NCBI RefSeq assembly: GCF_016658865.1
Contig: NZ_CP067992.1
Location: 1,941,001 to 2,005,000, forward strand
Direction: 5' to 3'
DNA: 64,000 bases
Source of the DNA: Streptococcus mitis
GTDB taxonomy: Bacteria > Bacillota > Bacilli > Lactobacillales > Streptococcaceae
The notes under the pieces were generated by a model that searched no databases, was not told the DNA's origin, and saw only the letters and a program-made list of their open reading frames with translations. Positions 25,472 through 34,570 of the stretch are shown here, in pieces. Both the position numbers and the translations under genes were made by a program. Each line of letters opens with the position of its first letter. Positions within the stretch are counted from its first letter, which is position 1.

Positions 25472-25603
25472 TTAAAATTCATTATAGATAAAGCTTCCTT
25501 GACCCTGACCAAGATAGCTAAAGAAGTAAAGCAGCCCTAGAAAGATAAGAAAATACAAGGCTGTCCGACCAAGAAATATGTACAATTCTTTTCTCTGTTT
25601 CAT
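25472..25603 (-). CDS. dltX: DltX microprotein of the canonical dlt operon
   Basis: This 43-residue protein begins MKQRKELYIFLGRTALY, has a single transmembrane segment (about 13-30) and ends in FIYNEF. The FxYxxF C-terminal motif is the DltX hallmark; its Tyr is reported as the D-alanyl acceptor between DltB and DltD. It is the first gene of the operon, after a strong promoter at 25676-25705. No strong Shine-Dalgarno is seen; TTTTTCTTG precedes the ATG. Confidence 0.93.
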   Translation of the reverse strand: MKQRKELYIFLGRTALYFLIFLGLLYFFSYLGQGQGSFIYNEF

Positions 25604-25675
25604 CAAGAAAAACCATTCATTTCTGTAATTTTCCGCTAAAATAAAATCAATTTCTTACTAATTTATTTTTCTGCT

Positions 25676-25705
25676 ATTATACCACTTTATAGACTAGTTT
25701 TTCAA
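25676..25705 (-). promoter_or_regulatory. dltXABCD promoter
   Basis: Minus-strand reading: TTGAAA (25705-25700), an 18-nt spacer, TATAAT (25681-25676), with TGG just before the -10 (extended). The start codon of dltX is 72 nt downstream. Confidence 0.75.
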
Positions 25706-25789
25706 TTGTTTACCCGTCTATTTTCACTACGTTCCAGTAACATTAATTTGTTCCATATGATTCTTTCTAATGATAGTTTGAATGCTTTT

Positions 25790-25925
25790 CAGTATAAATT
25801 ATATGGGGCTACAATAAAGTAGGCTCCATACTACCTATAGAGGATGTCTCCACTATAAATATTATAGAGCCTTATCTTATGTCTCACTTTATCGGTGCAG
25901 TTCCCTTTATCTAGAGTTTTTTATA
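25790..25925. other. Structured non-coding stretch, possible insertion-sequence remnant
   Basis: Two adjacent imperfect hairpins (about 25803-25832 and 25838-25860) are followed by a segment reading AGAGCCTTATCTTATGTCTC. By recall this resembles terminal regions of streptococcal IS630-type elements. A weakly similar GAGACAAAA stretch lies near 28616 on the other side of the second dlt module. No transposase is present. Confidence 0.3.
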
Positions 25926-25935
25926 GTATGTAATC

Positions 25936-26094
25936 CTAAAATTCACTATAGATAAATTCTTGAATGTTCGAAAAATCGGTCACAAAACAATAAATCACGA
26001 TGCTTAAGATAACCGTATAGAAAAATAACGTCCACAAGATTAAACGGTGTGTGTTAGTTAGCTTGGTTTGCAAATTTGTAAAGCTCTTTTTCAA
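25936..26094 (-). CDS. DltX-like microprotein of the second dlt-like module
   Basis: A 52-residue frame with TTG start (MKKSFTNLQTKLTNTHRL) has one transmembrane segment (about 17-38) and ends FIYSEF, the same FxYxxF motif as DltX. AAAGGA lies 10 nt before this TTG. A shorter 45-residue form could start at TTG 26073. The frame opens after a TGA, so no ATG or GTG start is possible. It overlaps the 3' end of the DltD-like gene by 41 nt in another frame. Its order after dltB2 and dltD2 is the same set of parts as the canonical operon, rearranged. The function is inferred from the motif. Confidence 0.72.
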   Translation of the reverse strand: MKKSFTNLQTKLTNTHRLILWTLFFYTVILSIVIYCFVTDFSNIQEFIYSEF

Positions 26095-27226
26095 CTTCCA
26101 TCCATCCTTTCACTCCAACGTGCATCACATCAAATAAAAAGTAATCATCATACTCTCTGTTTCCATAGTTTAATACCGTTGCACCATGGCTTTTTGCGAC
26201 ATCTTCTATTTTTTTATAAGTTTTCTCCCGCATCTCTCTTGAGACACCTGTGTAGTCATTCCATTTACCATTTACTGGGAAAATAATGACCTCAACTTCA
26301 ATGCCCAATTCCTTGGCAACTGTCAAGAAGAGTTCCATATCTGAATACTCTGGTGACTCCAGATAACTCAAATCTTTATTAGAATCTTTCAGAGATACAT
26401 AGCGATCTTTTAAGTAGGTATTGTAGTAGTTATTATCAACAGCATAATCATTATTGTCTGTTTTCTTTTTGACCTCTTCTACAAACTGATTCGTCATTTT
26501 CTCCCAATCATAGTCTGGGGTTTTATCCCCTAGTGAAGGATAAGCTGATTTGGCATGTTTTTGATAAAAAGTCTGTTTGAGTTTAAAGGAATAAATCGCG
26601 TTATCGAACTCTAATAGTTTTTTATCAACAATCGTTCCTTTCTCATCTATGAAATAACTTTTGTATTTTTTGTAGATGTCATTTTGTTGCTTGTTCCCCT
26701 TGGTAATCTCGATAATGCGATTGATTAGTTTTTCTTTCGTTTCCTTACTAATCTTGTCATTATCTAGCATGTGGAAAATATGTTCCTGAGAAGCCTTATT
26801 CAAAAAGGCATCTTGATGGGTCCCATCTTTTTCAAACCACTGAACCGACTCTATTATAGCCACTTTTCGCTTAGTCATAGATCCTTCAATTGAGCCCAAG
26901 GTCGTAGCCTGAATGATGTTTTGTGAATAGCTGGTTCCAATCTGCATGATATTAAAATCGTTGTAGTTAAAAATTTTATTGGGATGATAGTCTTCATTTA
27001 TCGTTGCAACCAACTCAGATGACCCCAATAAAACCAATGTATTGGGAGTGATATTGCTTGTTAAAATATCTCTACTTTTATACTTTTCATACGAAGTGCT
27101 ATAGCGAATACTATTATCCTTTACTTTATAATAATCATCAATCTTCTTGACGTATGTCACATTTAAAAGCGCAAGCGTCGCAATTACGAGCACAAGCGAT
27201 AGCAAAAATGCTTTTAGTTTAATCAT
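26054..27226 (-). CDS. DltD-like SGNH acyltransferase (second copy)
   Basis: This 390-residue paralogue of DltD has one N-terminal membrane anchor (about 5-25), a serine motif VLLGSSEL near 67-74, and a C-terminal catalytic DVMHVGVKGW. It is clearly diverged from the canonical DltD, though the C-terminal LGIEVEVIIFPVNGKWNDYTG matches the DltD pattern. It lies 47 nt after dltB2 and overlaps the DltX-like gene. It probably attaches an acyl group to a surface polymer; whether the group is D-alanine and which polymer is modified are unknown. Confidence 0.85.
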   Translation of the reverse strand: MIKLKAFLLSLVLVIATLALLNVTYVKKIDDYYKVKDNSIRYSTSYEKYKSRDILTSNITPNTLVLLGSSELVATINEDYHPNKIFNYNDFNIMQIGTSYSQNIIQATTLGSIEGSMTKRKVAIIESVQWFEKDGTHQDAFLNKASQEHIFHMLDNDKISKETKEKLINRIIEITKGNKQQNDIYKKYKSYFIDEKGTIVDKKLLEFDNAIYSFKLKQTFYQKHAKSAYPSLGDKTPDYDWEKMTNQFVEEVKKKTDNNDYAVDNNYYNTYLKDRYVSLKDSNKDLSYLESPEYSDMELFLTVAKELGIEVEVIIFPVNGKWNDYTGVSREMREKTYKKIEDVAKSHGATVLNYGNREYDDYFLFDVMHVGVKGWMEVEKELYKFANQAN

Positions 27227-27273
27227 CTCGTTTTATCCTATCCCTTCGATCCGTCCAATCTCTTTTCAAGTTC

Positions 27274-28428
27274 TTATCTCTTTAAAATCGTCAGTAAGAT
27301 TTTATAAGGTTCACCTGAAAAGATAAAGAAACCAATCATAACCAAATTCATGGTCACAAACCAACTCAGTAGCTTATACCAATCTTTATTTTTATTTTTC
27401 TTATAAAAATTGCTTTTCTTTTGATACACTTCAAATCCAGCCATCAAGACACCGTGATAAAAACCATAAACAATGTAGCTAACACTAAGGCCATGCCAAA
27501 AACCCATGACCAACATATTGACCATATAGGCATAGGTTGCATTGTGTAGTCTATTTTTAAACCATTTTTTCCTGATAACCTGCATCAATACTCTTGAAAA
27601 TACAAAATCTCTCAACCAGGTCGACAAGGTGATATGCCACCTGGTCCAGAAATCCTTGATATCGACACTCAAGAAAGGTTTATTAAAGTTCATCGGTGTC
27701 TGAATACCTAGAATGTTGCTACTTCCAACGGCCATTAGACTATAGCCTGCAAAGTCGAAGAACAGATACAAGGTATAGAGGTACATATACTTGATTGAGT
27801 AAACGACTGTGCCAGTATTATTTAGAGCGAGTAACATCTGGTAAACATAGGTTGATAAAACAACCTTGTAAAGAAGGCCTAGAACGATACGATACACACC
27901 GTCCCCTGCTAACTCTAGATACTCTTTTCGAGGCATGACCTCGTTTATCTCTTTTAAAAATCTCCTACTCCGATCAATCGGACCAGCACTAACTGTAGGG
28001 AAAAAAAGTAAAAATTGCAGGTAGTCTTTTATACTAATCTTTTCTTTAATCAAGCCATCCGATATCTCCAGCATGATCTGAATGGTCTTAAAGGACATGT
28101 AAGAAATGCCAATAAAGGCCAACAAATGCAGAGAAGTCAAGGCAAAGACTTTATTGATCACTAAAGGAAGAATGGAAAGGAAAACCAGTGGTTTCAGCCG
28201 CTTTGCCTCTATCCTCTGTGCTAGAAAAACTAGAAAATATTGGTAAATGACAAAGGCAAGTAAATAGACAATCATTGCTCTACTCTTGCCATAAATAGCT
28301 CCTGCAAATAAGAGGGAGAGCACCAAAATATAGTAGTCCTTACGTTTTTCAAAAAAGTTTACTACAAAACCAATTAGTAAAACTACAAACAAAAGAAGGA
28401 AAAACTCATTCCCCTCGAAATAATTCAT
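27274..28428 (-). CDS. DltB-like MBOAT acyl transporter (second copy)
   Basis: The 384-residue multi-pass MBOAT is read from ATG MNYFEGNEFF, with AAAGGAG 10 nt upstream; a TTG three codons earlier is too close to the ribosome site. The motifs DFWTRWHITLSTWLRDFVF and MGFWHGLSVSY hold the active His. It is diverged from DltB but keeps the whole fold. It is first in a dltB2-dltD2-dltX2 transcript. No dltA or dltC accompanies it, so it must share the canonical DltA/DltC or use another donor. Confidence 0.87.
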   Translation of the reverse strand: MNYFEGNEFFLLLFVVLLIGFVVNFFEKRKDYYILVLSLLFAGAIYGKSRAMIVYLLAFVIYQYFLVFLAQRIEAKRLKPLVFLSILPLVINKVFALTSLHLLAFIGISYMSFKTIQIMLEISDGLIKEKISIKDYLQFLLFFPTVSAGPIDRSRRFLKEINEVMPRKEYLELAGDGVYRIVLGLLYKVVLSTYVYQMLLALNNTGTVVYSIKYMYLYTLYLFFDFAGYSLMAVGSSNILGIQTPMNFNKPFLSVDIKDFWTRWHITLSTWLRDFVFSRVLMQVIRKKWFKNRLHNATYAYMVNMLVMGFWHGLSVSYIVYGFYHGVLMAGFEVYQKKSNFYKKNKNKDWYKLLSWFVTMNLVMIGFFIFSGEPYKILLTILKR

Positions 28429-28832
28429 ACCAGCCAAACTCCTTTTTTCTTTTTCTCATCTCTTGATTTATCTTTTTAAGATTAGTTCCTATCATATTAC
28501 CAAGGATAGTTAACTTTATTCATTATATCATAATTTAAAAACTAAAAATACTTCTGTTATTTTATTTCTTAAAATAAAAAATCCAACTGACTCTCAGTAC
28601 TGAACCCCAATAATGAGACAAAATTATTCACACCATAAATAAAATTCAAGAACAAAAAATTGATGAAGGAAGCAGTGAAAGATTCTGCCTTTTTAGCTAA
28701 AATAGTAATCAACACCAGTATACAAACTTAAAAAAATCAAAACGACCAAAATGAAGTGAGAAAGTGCTCCTTATTTTGGTCGTTTTTTGTAAGTTATGTT
28801 TATTACGGTATGAATAATTGAGTTTTAATATC
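28429..28832. other. Intergenic region with dltB2 promoter and glp terminator
   Basis: On minus, an extended -10 TGATATAAT (TATAAT at 28527-28522) lies about 95 nt before dltB2. Between 28570 and 28740 I see no gene. A stretch near 28598-28620 (GAACCCCAATAATGAGACAA) looks like mobile-element debris but cannot be identified. Confidence 0.45.
28741..28784. terminator. Terminator of glpKOF (probably bidirectional)
   Basis: AACGACCAAAAT and ATTTTGGTCGTT form a 12-bp perfect stem with a 20-nt loop. T-runs follow in both directions. Confidence 0.85.
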
Positions 28833-29537
28833 TTAGAAAAGTGAGAATACAAGCACGGCCAAGGCTGCACCGATAACAGGTCCTACAACTGGAATCCAAG
28901 CATAAGACCAGTCTCCGTCTCCCTTGTTTGGAATTGGCAAGATGCTGTGCATGATACGAGGGCCAAGGTCACGCGCAGGGTTCAAGGCATAGCCTGTTGT
29001 CCCACCAAGTGATAGACCAATACCGACAATCAACGTTCCCACTGCGAAGGTTCCGATACCTGCCTGAAAATCGTACAGCCCCAAAGCAAAGATTGTCAAT
29101 ACCAAAACAAAGGTGCCAAGGATTTCGCTGATCAAGTTAGAAACTGTATCCTTGATGGCTGGACCAGTGCTGAAGGTTGCTAGGATATTGCCTGCATTTT
29201 CTTCTGCCTCATAATGCGGTTTGAATTGCAACCAAACCAAAATCTGACCGAGCATAGCCCCTGCAAACTGAGCTAGGATATAAGGGAAAACGGAAGCCCA
29301 AGGCAAACCACCTTTTAAGGCTACACCAATAGTCACCGCTGGATTTAAATGAGCCGGACTGAGCTTGCCAGATACAAAGACTGCAACGGCAACGGCAATC
29401 CCCCAACCCATAGTAATCACAATCCAACCTGAATTGTTACTCTTAGTTTTTGGAAGAACCACACCTGCAACAACACCATTTCCTAGAAGAATCAGGATTA
29501 AAGTCCCCAAAAATTCTCCAAATAATTCATTCATCAT
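28833..29537 (-). CDS. glpF: Glycerol facilitator GlpF
   Basis: This 234-residue aquaglyceroporin has six transmembrane segments and the two half-helix motifs HLNPAVTIG and ALNPARDLG (NPA boxes). The Asp after the second NPAR is typical of glycerol channels. The start MMNELFGEF was chosen because GGAGA lies 9 nt upstream; the longer frame lacks a site. It is third in glpK-glpO-glpF. Confidence 0.95.
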   Translation of the reverse strand: MMNELFGEFLGTLILILLGNGVVAGVVLPKTKSNNSGWIVITMGWGIAVAVAVFVSGKLSPAHLNPAVTIGVALKGGLPWASVFPYILAQFAGAMLGQILVWLQFKPHYEAEENAGNILATFSTGPAIKDTVSNLISEILGTFVLVLTIFALGLYDFQAGIGTFAVGTLIVGIGLSLGGTTGYALNPARDLGPRIMHSILPIPNKGDGDWSYAWIPVVGPVIGAALAVLVFSLF

Positions 29538-29606
29538 CTTTCTGTCTCCATTAAAAAGAAGGGGCGGGCGACAAGGAATGCTGCCCTCCACATCTTTTCC
29601 TTTTTC

Positions 29607-31433
29607 TTAATTTTTTAATTCTGCTAAATCGTTGTTAGCGAGAGCTGCTTCAACATCCGAACGATAGACTGCTTTTTCTTCTTCTGACCAGTCATAGAAG
29701 CGTCCCATTTCATCCAAAACTGGCTCTACGATGCTGTCTAAGCTATCACGCATAAAGAGCATGTGGTTGGTACGACGAAGGAGGAAGTCAACTGGGCTGA
29801 GAGCCAACTCATTGCGCATTGCATAGTGAAGTGACAAGGTGTCTGCCAAGCTGAGTCCTGGCGCTTGTTCCAAGCTGTGAGCAAGGGCAAAGACCTTCGG
29901 TGCATTTGAACCGTAAAGATTTGCTAGATAGTGAGCTTCCTTGCTATCCAATCCACGTGACACTCCAAGTTGCGCAAAGGCTTCGATTTCTGAGTCCACA
30001 TTTGCTGGGTTCAATTCTCCACCTGAAACAGGGTAAGTCTTAGAATTGATCAGTTTAAAGCTGCGGTCAAATTCTGCTTTGAGGATGTCAACCACGCGCT
30101 CCATAGCTCCCTCAGCCATCTTACGGTAGTCTGTGATTTTACCACCAGCAAGGGTCAAGAGACCATTATCGTCTCGGTCCAAGCTAGAACCACGAGAAAC
30201 TGCAGATGGGTCCAAATGTTTCTCAGAGGTACTGCTTTCAAGCTTGCTAACAGCAGCCTCTACATCTTCACGCGTTTTTTCTTTAGAGAGGTAAGACTCA
30301 ACAGTCGCAATCAAGTTGTTAAAGCTTTCATCGCTGATGGTTCCGTTATTTCCTCCATTGTAGTCAGAAGCGCTATTGCCTGCGATCAATGGACGAAGAC
30401 CTGCCCAGCTGCTTTCGATATCATCAATGGTGATGTTGGCTTCTGGGAAGCGGTTGTTGACAATGCGAATTAGGTAATCTACATCTTCTTGAGTTACTTT
30501 TGGATGTTCCAAATCACCTGTGTAGTCTGTATCAGTTGTACCGAAGTAAGTCTTGTTTTCACGTGGAAGAACAAAGACCATACGGCCGTCACCCAAACCT
30601 GTGTCAAAGTAAACTGGCTGTGAAACCTTAATTTTGCTTGAATCCACGACTAGGTGAACTCCCTTAGTTGGACGCATTTGTGAGAATTGTGTTCCCTTAT
30701 TAGACAAATTGCGCACCTTGTCGCTCCAAGGACCTGTTGTATTGATAACCAGACGAGCCTTGATTTCAAAGACTTGGTCTGTCAAGAGATCACGAGCTAC
30801 AACACCTGTAATCTTGCCACTTTCGTCAAAGAGGAAGCCTTCTGCCTTCACGTGGTTAGCAATGAGGGCACCGTCTTGGTTGGCACGTTTGATGTTTTCA
30901 ATCACGAGACGTGCATCGTTGTTACGGAAGTCAAGATAAACCCCACCTCCTACCAAGCCTTCTTTCTTCAAGTTTGGCTGGCGTTCTAAGACTTCTTCCT
31001 TGCTCAAGACCTTGTTAGCAGCTGGTGTGTTGTTAACACCCGCCAAAAGGTCGTACAAGTCCATGGCTACTTTGAGACGGAAGAGGCTAAAGGTCGCTCC
31101 ATCCTCATCGTAAACTGGTAAAAGCATTGGGTCTGGTTTTGGAATATGTGGAGCGATTTGTTGAACTACAGCACGTTCAGAAACCGTATCTGAGACTACT
31201 TCTACGTCAAATTGTTTGAGGTAACGAAGACCTCCGTGAACTAATTTTGTTGAACGGCTAGATGTTCCTTCTGCGAAGTCCTGCATTTCAATCAAACCAG
31301 TCTCAAGGCCGCTAGCTGCCGCCTGCAAGGCTACACCAGCCCCTGTGATTCCTCCACCGATAATCAAGAGATCCAGGGTACGTTCCTGCATTTTTTTAAT
31401 TGATAATTCACGTGTTTTCTTTGAAAATTCCAT
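29607..31433 (-). CDS. glpO: Alpha-glycerophosphate oxidase GlpO
   Basis: This 608-residue flavoprotein has an N-terminal FAD fold LLIIGGGITGAGVALQA and the GTSSRSTKLVHGGLRYL motif. The insertion around 350-400 (KEKTREDVEAAVSKLESS) separates streptococcal GlpO from respiratory GlpD. It oxidises sn-glycerol-3-phosphate to DHAP with O2, making H2O2. It lies between glpK (41 nt) and glpF (69 nt). Confidence 0.95.
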   Translation of the reverse strand: MEFSKKTRELSIKKMQERTLDLLIIGGGITGAGVALQAAASGLETGLIEMQDFAEGTSSRSTKLVHGGLRYLKQFDVEVVSDTVSERAVVQQIAPHIPKPDPMLLPVYDEDGATFSLFRLKVAMDLYDLLAGVNNTPAANKVLSKEEVLERQPNLKKEGLVGGGVYLDFRNNDARLVIENIKRANQDGALIANHVKAEGFLFDESGKITGVVARDLLTDQVFEIKARLVINTTGPWSDKVRNLSNKGTQFSQMRPTKGVHLVVDSSKIKVSQPVYFDTGLGDGRMVFVLPRENKTYFGTTDTDYTGDLEHPKVTQEDVDYLIRIVNNRFPEANITIDDIESSWAGLRPLIAGNSASDYNGGNNGTISDESFNNLIATVESYLSKEKTREDVEAAVSKLESSTSEKHLDPSAVSRGSSLDRDDNGLLTLAGGKITDYRKMAEGAMERVVDILKAEFDRSFKLINSKTYPVSGGELNPANVDSEIEAFAQLGVSRGLDSKEAHYLANLYGSNAPKVFALAHSLEQAPGLSLADTLSLHYAMRNELALSPVDFLLRRTNHMLFMRDSLDSIVEPVLDEMGRFYDWSEEEKAVYRSDVEAALANNDLAELKN

Positions 31434-31474
31434 ATTTACACACTTTCTAACTAAGTCGCTTTATTCTTCCAGTA

Positions 31475-33028
<1,554 letters not shown>

Positions 33029-33034
33029 CTAACT

Positions 33035-33064
33035 AGTATACAAAATAAAGCGCTTTCTTGTTCA
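33035..33064 (-). promoter_or_regulatory. glpKOF promoter with cre-like operator
   Basis: Minus-strand reading: TGAACA (33064-33059), an 18-nt spacer, TATACT (33040-33035). The spacer contains AGAAAGCGCTTTAT (33058-33045), a palindromic cre-like sequence that differs slightly from the consensus. CcpA bound there would block RNA polymerase. Confidence 0.6.
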
Positions 33065-33114
33065 TCAACTTTTTTTAATTTTTTAAAAAATGTGAGGAGA
33101 TTGTGTAAATTTCA

Positions 33115-33140
33115 CAAAAAAGACCTGGAACAACCAAGCC
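33115..33140 (-). terminator. Terminator of the Mga-like regulator
   Basis: Minus-strand reading: GGCTTGG, loop TTGTT, CCAGGTC, then TTTTTT. The seven-pair stem includes two G-U pairs. Confidence 0.65.
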
Positions 33141-33142
33141 TT

Positions 33143-34570
33143 TTAAGTGAATAATAACTGACGAATCCCTGCCAAATCTTCCATATCCAAGTCGTTTTTT
33201 AAATAATAAACTGGGGTCTGTTCCTTCTTATGAATGGGGTTATTGGTAACCAGCAAATCATAATGCCGACTAGGGTCATAGGCTTCAATGGTAATAAAAC
33301 GATTGTATTCCAAATACCGTTTCAAAATGGCTGCCATCCTTGAAAAGACAAGAAAACCAGATGTCAAATCTAGACCAATCCGCATATGCTGACCACCATT
33401 TTCAGCCATATATTCCATCAACTGGAGCCATTCCCAGAGAATTTTCTTATCCAAATCCGTTCCCTGATGAAAGGCAGGTAAAGCATGAAAAATCTCTTCT
33501 GCTGTCTCTTTAAAATCATGTTCCATCAGCAAATAAGGATGACGATTCTCTGTCTGGTATCTGTACTGATCTTGTAAAATATAGCCCTTATATAGATAGA
33601 CTTGAGCACAAAGCTGACTAAGTTCATAGGTGACATGGTCCTCTGTGTAGTCCCCTAGTAACTCCTCCTTCTTCATTTCTTGAATCAATTGCGTCAGCAA
33701 ATCTGCCAACTGCCCTCCAAAACCAAGGATATATTCCATAGTATGAAGAGGAAGAATACGATGAGATAGGAGGAAAGAGAAGAAAATCATCATCTCCCCA
33801 TCCTCAGTTCCTAGAGGAAGGTGTTGTCCAGCGAAAAAGGACGGAGCCTTTCGATGCAAACGAAGGTAGAAAATATTGTCAAAATACCCTCGCATTTTTT
33901 CTTCTATGACTTGAAACTGACAGGCATTGACCCGGAGACGTTGTTGACTGATGTGAGCCCAGAGAACCAGGTCCAATTTCTGACCCGAAGACAAACTTGC
34001 ACCGCAGATTTCTTCTAAAGTGGCAATCTCCTGTTTTCTCTCTGATTTCTGCATGTGACCTTCCCACTCCTGACTGGACCAAACCTTGCGGAAAAGACAG
34101 AAATAGAAATAGCGAATTTGATGTTCTGGACCTCGCCACCGTCCATTTTGGATGGATAAGTCAAATTCTGACAAAATCTGATTTATACTAGCTAAGTGGC
34201 GACCAAGCGTAGCCTCACTAATCATCAATTCTTGAGCCAGCTGATGGGCTAAAAACTGTTGGTGGTAGAGAAGATAAACAAGAATCTGATATTTAACAGC
34301 ATTCTCCAAAAACAGGATCCTAATATCTCTCCCCTTGGTAGCTGCACCAATCGATAGACGCAGATTCTCATCTTCTAACTGGATTGTCAGCTCTAAACCA
34401 CTATCCAAAGCCTTGTCATTGAGCAGGGTAACATATTTGGTTAGGGTTGCTTTTGAAAATCCTGTTTCCTCCATTACAGCCTTGACGGTCGTCTGAGACT
34501 CTTGTAGTAGAAAGGAAAGGATTGAAAATTGGCCAGATTCAGCCTTTTCCATCAAGTCTCCTAAATACAT
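33143..34570 (-). CDS. Mga-family transcriptional regulator
   Basis: This 475-residue protein has two N-terminal HTH regions ([21 protein letters not shown] and [19 protein letters not shown]) followed by an Mga/PRD-like central part. Two starts are possible. MYLGDL has AAAGGGG at good spacing, and MEKAESG six codons later has AGGAGA. It lies next to glpKOF on the same strand but upstream with its own terminator, so it may regulate glycerol genes; this is only inferred from position. Confidence 0.85.

What the first reader, a model, noticed from the sequence alone, without database searches (positions are those of the whole stretch)
25936..28428. A second, stripped-down dlt-like acylation module (MBOAT + DltD-like + DltX-like) beside the canonical dlt operon
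Seen: the MBOAT (27274-28428) and SGNH/DltD-like (26054-27226) genes keep their catalytic motifs but are diverged from the local DltB/DltD. They are followed by a DltX-like microprotein with the FxYxxF end. dltA and dltC are absent. Known: DltB passes D-Ala from DltC to the DltX tyrosine, and DltD moves it to teichoic acid; other MBOAT/SGNH systems acylate other polymers. Inference: this module either shares DltA/DltC to D-alanylate a second polymer or site, or uses another acyl donor. In pneumococcal genomes, as I recall, the same spot holds only small gene remnants, so the intact module may be lineage-specific.
Basis: partly seen in the sequence, partly recalled or inferred. Interest (0 to 1): 0.85.

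Follow-up and report, generated by a model that had tools for sequence, protein, structure and literature searches.

The report
Borrowed second D-alanine transfer cassette
This oral streptococcus carries, beside its normal set of genes for decorating the cell wall with D-alanine, a second three-gene transfer arm akin to that of Gemella and Granulicatella, which probably borrows the host's own D-alanine supply to decorate a further wall target.

Summary
In detail: an intact MBOAT (DltB2), SGNH/DltD-type enzyme (DltD2) and DltX-type microprotein (DltX2, ending FIYSEF) lie upstream of a canonical dltXABCD operon. They are not a local duplication. DltB2 is 40% and DltD2 23% identical to the local proteins, and in trees they group with the dlt proteins of Gemella and Granulicatella, where the same types sit beside dltA and dltC in the order A-B-C-D-X. 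The three genes form a discrete cassette with its own conserved extended -10 element (21 of 21 loci examined), found at three sites in two genera: before dltX, behind metNI, and behind dltC in a Granulicatella-like genome whose relative shows the empty site. DltD2 occurs in 36 of 284 Streptococcus species genomes; all 36 have DltA and a canonical DltD. All three genes are under strong purifying selection; a minority of copies are broken. DltB2 keeps the DltC-docking residues, mostly missing in MBOATs without DltC. Most likely it is a horizontally acquired D-alanine transfer arm fed by the host's DltA/DltC. The acceptor is unknown; a site or polymer different from DltD's is my guess. No expression or chemistry data were available. 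Eight term searches (capped listings) showed no description of it.

The parts
28522..28530 (-). extended -10 promoter element TGnTATAAT of the cassette, about 100 bp before the DltB2 start
   Evidence: present 66-105 bp upstream of DltB2 in 21 of 21 loci examined at three insertion sites; 0.008 expected per 165 bp from the window's own count
28439..28444 (-). ribosome-binding site AAGGAG of DltB2
   Evidence: AAGGAG or AGGAGG in the last 25 bp before the start in 21 of 21 loci examined
27274..28428 (-). DltB2, MBOAT membrane acyltransferase, 384 aa
   Evidence: PF03062, TIGR04091 above cut-off; model pLDDT 84.1, best solved matches are DltB
26054..27226 (-). DltD2, SGNH-type D-alanyl transferase, 390 aa, presumed triad S70/D366/H369
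   Evidence: PF04914, TIGR04092 above cut-off; model pLDDT 90.4, all 12 solved matches with E <= 0.001 are DltD; invariant columns
25936..26094 (-). DltX2, microprotein ending FIYSEF, TTG start, overlapping dltD2 by 41 bp
   Evidence: FIYSEF in 20 of 20 streptococcal copies; Pfam DltX 17.4 bits, below cut-off
25769..25882 (.). strong hairpin between the cassette and dltX, resembling the pneumococcal RNA family Srn266
   Evidence: z -3.67; RF02822 55.2 bits, below gathering 63; found in 8 further loci with the cassette at this site, not in the three dlt loci without it that were searched
25676..25705 (-). promoter-like site of the canonical dlt operon (11 of 12 matches, TG before -10)
   Evidence: consensus scan; not evidence of function alone
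25472..25606 (-). canonical dltX, ends FIYNEF
   Evidence: PF12459 57.6 bits
23901..25451 (-). canonical dltA, proposed shared D-alanine ligase
   Evidence: TIGR01734 810.7 bits
22660..23904 (-). canonical dltB
   Evidence: TIGR04091 542.4 bits
22408..22647 (-). canonical dltC, proposed shared carrier protein
   Evidence: NF003464 124.1 bits
21147..22430 (-). canonical dltD
   Evidence: TIGR04092 421 bits

Best explanation
The three genes are a mobile D-alanine transfer arm of the Gemella/Granulicatella dlt lineage, present without its own dltA and dltC. The host's DltA loads D-alanine on the host's DltC; DltC docks on the cytoplasmic helix of DltB2 as it does on DltB; DltB2 passes D-alanine to the DltX2 C-terminal tyrosine; DltX2 hands it to Ser70 of DltD2, which esterifies an extracellular wall polymer. 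Shown here by sequence: gene content, lineage, discreteness of the cassette, own promoter element, kept active and docking residues, purifying selection. Inferred: use of host DltA/DltC, the D-alanyl cargo and each chemical step. Guessed: a role that DltD does not fill, most likely another teichoic acid population or hydroxyl. (The 0.65 covers a non-redundant role: 0.42 for a distinct polymer or hydroxyl, the rest for the same sites at another time, place or level.)
For: Lineage: DltB2 groups with Gemella DltB (100/100, 24 rows) and apart from streptococcal DltB (25-row clade, 100/99); DltD likewise in a quick tree (join with Gemella SH-aLRT 86). Five Gemella loci and Granulicatella elegans carry the same B, D, X types beside dltA and dltC, order A-B-C-D-X, and this MBOAT is the only one in the 3 such genomes searched. 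Donor: in 18 of 18 intact streptococcal DltB2 rows Arg317, Met332 and Tyr345 are kept, Lys312 in 17 of 18, whereas 15 MBOAT rows without a DltC match in their locus have no Arg317, Met332 or Tyr345 and 14 have no Lys312 (contact residues from PMC11035591, passages). DltC contact residues differ only by M36 to L between the two lineages. Carriers: 36 of 36 have DltA and a canonical DltD. In a Granulicatella-like genome the cassette starts 174 bp behind dltC. Selection: median dN/dS 0.067, 0.043, 0.023 for B2, D2, X2. Own promoter element in 21 of 21 loci examined.
Against: No biochemical, expression or cell-wall data. In 23 of 36 carriers (4 of them on another contig) the cassette is not seen next to dltA (tally), so linkage is not required; DltC was not counted genus-wide. 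All 36 having DltA is weak evidence because 230 of 284 genomes have it and carriers are related (P = 0.0003 ignoring kinship). The docking residues are not absolute: DltB rows linked to dltC also vary (Lys317 in Listeria, Thr317 in Staphylococcus agnetis, Pro312 in L080), DltB2 has Ser at 302, and one copy (L037) has Gln at 312. In L049 a terminator-like hairpin, read by eye, lies between dltC and the cassette. At least 3 of 21 named streptococcal loci have an interrupted DltB2 (L046, L048, L056) and one DltD2 (G082) has an internal stop, so it is dispensable. S. oralis Uo5 LTA is only sparsely alanylated (PMC4649388, passages), though I did not check that strain for the cassette.
Confidence: 0.65

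Rival explanations
1. Redundant arm: the cassette shares DltA/DltC and alanylates exactly the same sites as DltD, as a simple backup.
For: Own promoter element; DltD2 keeps the DltD fold and presumed triad; nothing known forces a second acceptor.
Against: A redundant copy should be lost or decay; instead dN/dS is as low as for the canonical genes over deep divergence, and DltD2 is only 23% identical to DltD, as expected if it reads another acceptor. (That some copies are broken is in favour of redundancy.)
Confidence: 0.22
2. The cassette transfers acetyl (or another acyl) groups, for instance the O-acetyl on galactose of S. oralis LTA, whose enzyme was unidentified in 2015.
For: PMC4649388 (passages) reports O-4 acetyl on beta-Galp and says the enzymes have to be identified; S. 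oralis strains carry the cassette; other MBOAT/SGNH pairs use acetyl-CoA (PMC12148441, passages).
Against: DltB2 keeps the DltC-docking residues that 15 MBOAT rows without a DltC match beside them mostly lack, is not fused to the hexapeptide motif as acetyl-CoA MBOATs are, and its relatives sit with dltA and dltC.
Confidence: 0.08
3. Neutral passenger: a transferred, non-functional piece of a dlt operon in decay.
For: At least 3 of 21 named streptococcal loci have an interrupted DltB2, one DltD2 has an internal stop (G082) and one genome keeps only a 173-bp remnant.
Against: Median dN/dS 0.023-0.067, FIYSEF in 20 of 20, promoter element in 21 of 21 loci examined.
Confidence: 0.05

Closest known systems
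Canonical dltXABCD D-alanylation system (DltB-DltX-DltD with DltA/DltC)
   Same: Same three membrane and extracellular parts, same active-site residues, same shuttle motif, same DltC-docking surface; proteins pass the NCBI DltB and DltD equivalog cut-offs.
   Different: No dltA or dltC of its own, X at the 3' end instead of before dltA, separate lineage, found in addition to a complete system.
Gemella and Granulicatella dlt gene sets (order A-B-C-D-X)
   Same: Nearest relatives: DltB 66-75% (Gemella) and 55% (G. elegans), DltD 50-52% and 45%; DltX of the same type with (T/A)DFSN before the C-terminal motif.
   Different: There it is the whole set and the only MBOAT of the 3 genomes searched; here only B, D and X are present and they stand beside a streptococcal-type system. 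Several Gemella DltX end YVYSEF or YVYSNF rather than F at the first motif position.
Acetyl-CoA-dependent MBOAT/SGNH pairs such as PatA/PatB
   Same: MBOAT passes an acyl group through a tyrosine in an FxYxxF-type motif to an SGNH enzyme (PMC12148441, passages).
   Different: There the motif is fused to the MBOAT on two extra helices and no carrier protein is used; DltB2 has neither feature.

Membership tests
Dlt D-alanylation system | DltB-type MBOAT with catalytic His pair and DltC-docking surface | tested here: met
   H289/H336/Y345 equivalents 18 of 18, Lys312 17 of 18, Arg317 18 of 18 intact streptococcal DltB2 rows; TIGR04091 489.7 against 375
Dlt D-alanylation system | DltD-type SGNH transferase with catalytic Ser, Asp, His | tested here: met
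   S70, D366, H369 among 18 invariant columns in 24 rows; fold matches only DltD at E <= 0.001
Dlt D-alanylation system | DltX microprotein with C-terminal FxYxxF | tested here: met
   FIYSEF in 20 of 20; but Pfam DltX score 17.4 is under its cut-off of 25
Dlt D-alanylation system | dltA and dltC encoded in the same unit | tested here: not met
   none in the cassette; present elsewhere in the genome, and 36 of 36 carriers have DltA
Dlt D-alanylation system | D-alanyl esters on teichoic acid depend on it | not testable with these tools
   needs deletion strains and chemistry
Recent paralogue of the local dlt genes | Groups with streptococcal DltB/DltD | tested here: not met
   40% and 23% identity; separate clades
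[quoted passage not shown]
   DltB2 ends ...ILLTILKR; motif is on DltX2
Acetyl-CoA MBOAT/SGNH pair (PatAB type) | Lacks the DltC-docking residues | tested here: not met
   residues kept in DltB2; Arg317, Met332, Tyr345 absent in 15 of 15 comparison rows, Lys312 in 14 of 15 (alignment there is gapped, and the rows' type is inferred)
Add-on to LtaS-made type I lipoteichoic acid | Carrier genomes encode an LtaS-type sulfatase-fold synthase | tested here: not met
   PF00884 absent from G000, G087, G347 and G348, present in G045, of the 5 streptococcal carriers searched; present in the Granulicatella-like carrier G343

The most novel reading that the evidence does not exclude
A portable acceptor-specificity cassette: a complete MBOAT-microprotein-SGNH arm that moves between genera on its own promoter and plugs into whatever DltA/DltC the host has, so that one charged carrier feeds two export arms and D-alanine is placed on a second wall polymer or hydroxyl.
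Probability: 0.42. Interest if true: 0.78.

Novelty: new variant of a known kind. Interest (0 to 1): 0.62.

Why it matters
Dlt is usually treated as one operon per cell (recalled), and DltB is proposed as a drug target (PMC11035591, passages). A transferable second arm would mean that a sizeable group of oral streptococci has two parallel D-alanine export routes from one carrier, that loss or inhibition of DltB or DltD may be partly bypassed, and that acceptor choice can be swapped by gene transfer. It also gives a natural pair, DltD against DltD2 in one cell, with which the question of what sets acceptor specificity can be tested. Standard annotation tends to hide it, because both proteins pass the models that name them plain DltB and DltD and the microprotein falls below the Pfam cut-off.

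Tried and rejected
Local duplication: rejected by identity and trees. LtaS-linked polymer: rejected as a general rule, since 4 of 5 streptococcal carriers searched lack PF00884. Tracking of choline teichoic acid: LicD is found in 36 of 36 carriers, but G045, G087 and G308 have only one LicD match and many non-carriers have three or four, so no clean link. Phage carriage: no relative found in the viral contig collection. Acetyl transfer: weakened. Structure prediction confirmed folds but could not test complexes. Literature term searches with no second-dlt report among the listed papers: (open-licence library only; two searches returned nothing; some searches listed only 20 of 106, 12 of 42, 15 of 101 and 6 of 7). 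PMC6212727 (pneumococcal annotation) gave no dlt hit. The key paper on DltX chemistry, whose DOI I recalled, was not held; its content is used only through PMC12148441.

Rows dropped or unseen: trees used ORFs of 360-440 aa, so the interrupted or cut copies L045, L046, L048 and L056 of DltB2 were left out, and the middle of that output was cut off; dN/dS used intact-length copies and pairs with dS over 0.15. The DltD tree is the quick version; long branches are flagged in both trees, and the DltB tool warned that the Staphylococcus row and the DltB2 side meet as long branches. One search scored two candidates per genome. Gene names glpF, glpO, glpK, hsp33, adcR and adcC are recalled from the sequences and come from no family search.
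Full report
WHAT IS THERE. On the minus strand, between glpF (ending at 28833; name recalled) and the canonical dltXABCD operon (25606 down to 21147), lie three genes in the order dltB2 (27274-28428, 384 aa), dltD2 (26054-27226, 390 aa) and dltX2 (25936-26094, 52 aa, TTG start, overlapping dltD2 by 41 bp). The coordinates of the finding are right. DltB2 and DltD2 pass the NCBI equivalog cut-offs for DltB and DltD (489.7 against 375 bits; 392.3 against 150); DltX2 reaches only 17.4 bits against Pfam's DltX cut-off of 25. Against the local canonical proteins, DltB2 is 40% and DltD2 23% identical, and DltX2 matches over 27 residues only. The genome (2,033,396 bases, one contig) has two MBOAT and two DltD genes and three small proteins with a phosphopantetheine site, one of them DltC. 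It belongs to a streptococcus whose glp genes are 98-99% identical to those of S. mitis L037 and L038.

LINEAGE. The genes are not a local duplication. In a 56-row DltB tree (IQ-TREE, careful mode) the streptococcal DltB2 group with a second DltB of strain 263_SSPC (99/94, 19 rows), then with Gemella DltB (100/100, 24 rows), then with Granulicatella (98/93, 27 rows); clostridial and actinobacterial rows fall on the same side. Streptococcal, Listeria, lactobacillus and Staphylococcus DltB lie in the other, 25-row clade (100/99). A quick DltD tree gives the same split, though the join with Gemella has SH-aLRT 86 only. Long branches are flagged in both trees: mostly outgroups, but also G. elegans and, for DltB, Gemella bergeri. 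Copies at the two streptococcal sites (below) are intermixed in the DltB2 part, so the cassette has moved or recombined within the genus. In five Gemella loci and in Granulicatella elegans the relatives of B2, D2 and X2 lie side by side with dltA and dltC, in the order A-B-C-D-X; the MBOAT is the only one in the two Gemella genomes and the one G. elegans genome searched. So in those genomes this type is the ordinary dlt system. PMC3783018 (passages) notes that DltX genes known in 2013 lay immediately upstream of dltA with two exceptions, so the X-last order is unusual.

A MOBILE CASSETTE. The three genes occur together at three places in two genera. Of 21 named streptococcal loci, ten lie upstream of dltX (for example S. 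mitis L037, S. infantis L040, L042, L047; L038 and L045 end at a contig edge and are placed by their upstream flank) and eleven lie behind a transporter gene pair (S. oralis L032, L034, L035, L036; S. peroris L043), in one of these (L046) with a truncated DltB2 and an intervening metI duplicate. The pair was identified by family search in L035 only, best matches MetN and MetI, both below the curated cut-offs; the others were placed by the same ORF. In unnamed species genomes, my tally of positions gives 13 of 36 beside dltA (one, G045, judged across a contig edge), 19 of 36 far away on the same contig and 4 of 36 on another contig. The third place is strain 263_SSPC (L049, titled Streptococcus): its flank is 94.7% identical over 8.6 kb to G132, a genome of another family of the order, so the record is misnamed and probably Granulicatella. 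There the cassette starts 174 bp behind dltC, and G132 shows the empty site: L049 9814-12541 against L181 6619-6673; a terminator-like hairpin, read by eye, lies between dltC and the cassette. This genome also keeps a native DltB, and a second DltD elsewhere, so there too the cassette is an addition. The stretch shared between the met site and the dlt site runs from about 25926 to 28445, in some strains to about 28558. S. oralis BCC10, S. peroris and G240 show dlt loci without the cassette.

OWN PROMOTER. An extended -10 element TGnTATAAT stands 66-105 bp before dltB2 in 21 of 21 loci examined (20 fetched loci and the window) at all three sites, with AAGGAG or AGGAGG before the start; the window holds 6 such elements in 128 kb of strand, 0.008 per 165 bp. 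At the dlt site no terminator-like site was found between dltX2 and dltX, so read-through is possible, but that scan found no more terminators than shuffled sequence gives (6 against 6.2).

DISTRIBUTION AND SELECTION. DltD2 (91% identity or more) is in 36 of 284 Streptococcus species genomes. All 36 also have DltA (230 of 284 overall; P = 0.0003 for a random draw, ignoring kinship, so weak) and a canonical DltD; DltC was not counted genus-wide. Median dN/dS is 0.067 (B2), 0.043 (D2) and 0.023 (X2 outside the overlap), against 0.057, 0.070, 0.040 and 0.027 for canonical B, D, A and C. FIYSEF ends 20 of 20 streptococcal DltX2. Against this, at least 3 of 21 named loci have an interrupted DltB2 (L046, L048, L056), the DltD2 of G082 has one internal stop, and G240 keeps only a 173-bp remnant, so the cassette is useful but dispensable.

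DONOR. PMC11035591 (passages) names the DltB residues that touch DltC in S. thermophilus: Met302, Val305, Ile306, Met309, Lys312, Arg317, with His289, His336 and Tyr345 at the active site. Mapped on 18 intact streptococcal DltB2: Arg317, Met332, both His and Tyr345 in 18 of 18, Lys312 in 17 of 18, the four helix positions Ser, Leu, Met, Ile. In 15 MBOAT rows of loci without a DltC match (L084-L097), Arg317, Met332 and Tyr345 are absent in all 15 and Lys312 in 14 (the alignment is gapped there, some of these loci are short, and calling the rows PatA/AlgI-like is my inference). The positions are not absolute: among DltB rows with dltC beside them, Listeria has Lys and S. agnetis Thr at 317, L016 has Arg and L080 Pro at 312. 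The DltC of Gemella and Granulicatella differs from streptococcal DltC at the contact residues only by Met36 to Leu. Acetyl-CoA-using MBOATs carry the shuttle motif fused to their own C-terminus (PMC12148441, passages); DltB2 does not. So a DltC-type donor is much likelier than acetyl-CoA, and the DltC found in this genome is the host's own. That DltB2 really accepts it is inferred.

FOLDS. The DltD2 model (pLDDT 90.4) matches only DltD structures at E <= 0.001 (12 of 12, TM 0.73-0.77); the DltB2 model (pLDDT 84.1) matches DltB best (TM by query length 0.87-0.89), then human PORCN and HHAT. Complexes could not be modelled.

ACCEPTOR. Unknown. This genome has no PF00884 match and hence no LtaS, nor have 3 of 4 other streptococcal carriers searched; G045 and the Granulicatella-like carrier G343 have one, the two Gemella and the G. 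elegans genomes none. PMC7136413 (abstract and passages) reports phosphorylcholine incorporation genes in all Gemellae, so the ancestral acceptor may be a choline-type teichoic acid like that of the mitis group. PMC6722419 (passages) describes variable teichoic acid genes across S. mitis, S. oralis and S. infantis, mostly of a galactose type, and its main text does not mention dlt. PMC4649388 (passages) finds zero to three alanines per S. oralis Uo5 LTA on ribitol and an O-acetyl on galactose with unidentified enzymes. I did not check strain Uo5 for the cassette. My choice, that DltD2 serves a teichoic acid population or hydroxyl that DltD does not, is a guess from the 23% identity and long conservation.

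NOVELTY. DltD2 relatives are named DltD in public databases and DltB2 passes the model that gives the name DltB, but eight term searches of an open-licence library, seen as capped listings, showed no report of a second B-D-X arm. It is a new variant of a known kind: the chemistry is that of Dlt, the packaging as a carrier-less, transferable arm beside a complete system is new to me.

Noticed in passing
L172:5333-8260 (window genome, G000:C1:1910332-1913259) and L176: The 3' end of metI looks like an insertion hotspot: in the window genome an Rgg-type regulator and a gene without family match (transporter-like by eye) lie between metI and a 242-bp, 94% identical duplicate of its 3' end; in G313 such a duplicate precedes a truncated DltB2.
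   Followed up: partly
L175, L176 (G313:C2:106560 and 139839): DltB2 5' part and DltD2 of the met-site cassette lie about 33 kb apart on one contig, as after a rearrangement.
   Followed up: no
L049: Record titled Streptococcus sp. 263_SSPC is 94.7% identical over 8.6 kb to a genome of another family (G132); it is probably Granulicatella, misnamed.
   Followed up: yes
L044:14514-15757: Canonical dltB of S. infantis SPAR10 reads as two pieces while its DltB2 is intact; an assembly error or a natural loss of the canonical arm.
   Followed up: no
window 25769-25882: Strong hairpin between cassette and dltX resembling Srn266, which PMC12323649 lists with 15 in a column that I read as copies, with transposase targets (passages); found in 8 further loci with the cassette at this site, not in the three dlt loci without it that were searched.
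   Followed up: partly
G013:C1:614266 and C2:316136: This Streptococcus genome has two DltB and two DltD matches but no DltD2 of the cassette type: perhaps a second complete dlt operon of another kind.
   Followed up: no
G132:C1:311231 and 1447833: In this Granulicatella-like genome the only DltD match lies over 0.8 Mb from dltABC, so donor and acceptor parts are split there too.
   Followed up: no
window 28833-34570: In the window, L037, L038 and L042 a glp cluster and a regulator lie between hsp33 and the cassette (names recalled); in L033, L040, L041, L044, L045, L047 and L048 hsp33 abuts the cassette, and in S. oralis BCC10 it abuts the dlt operon.
   Followed up: partly
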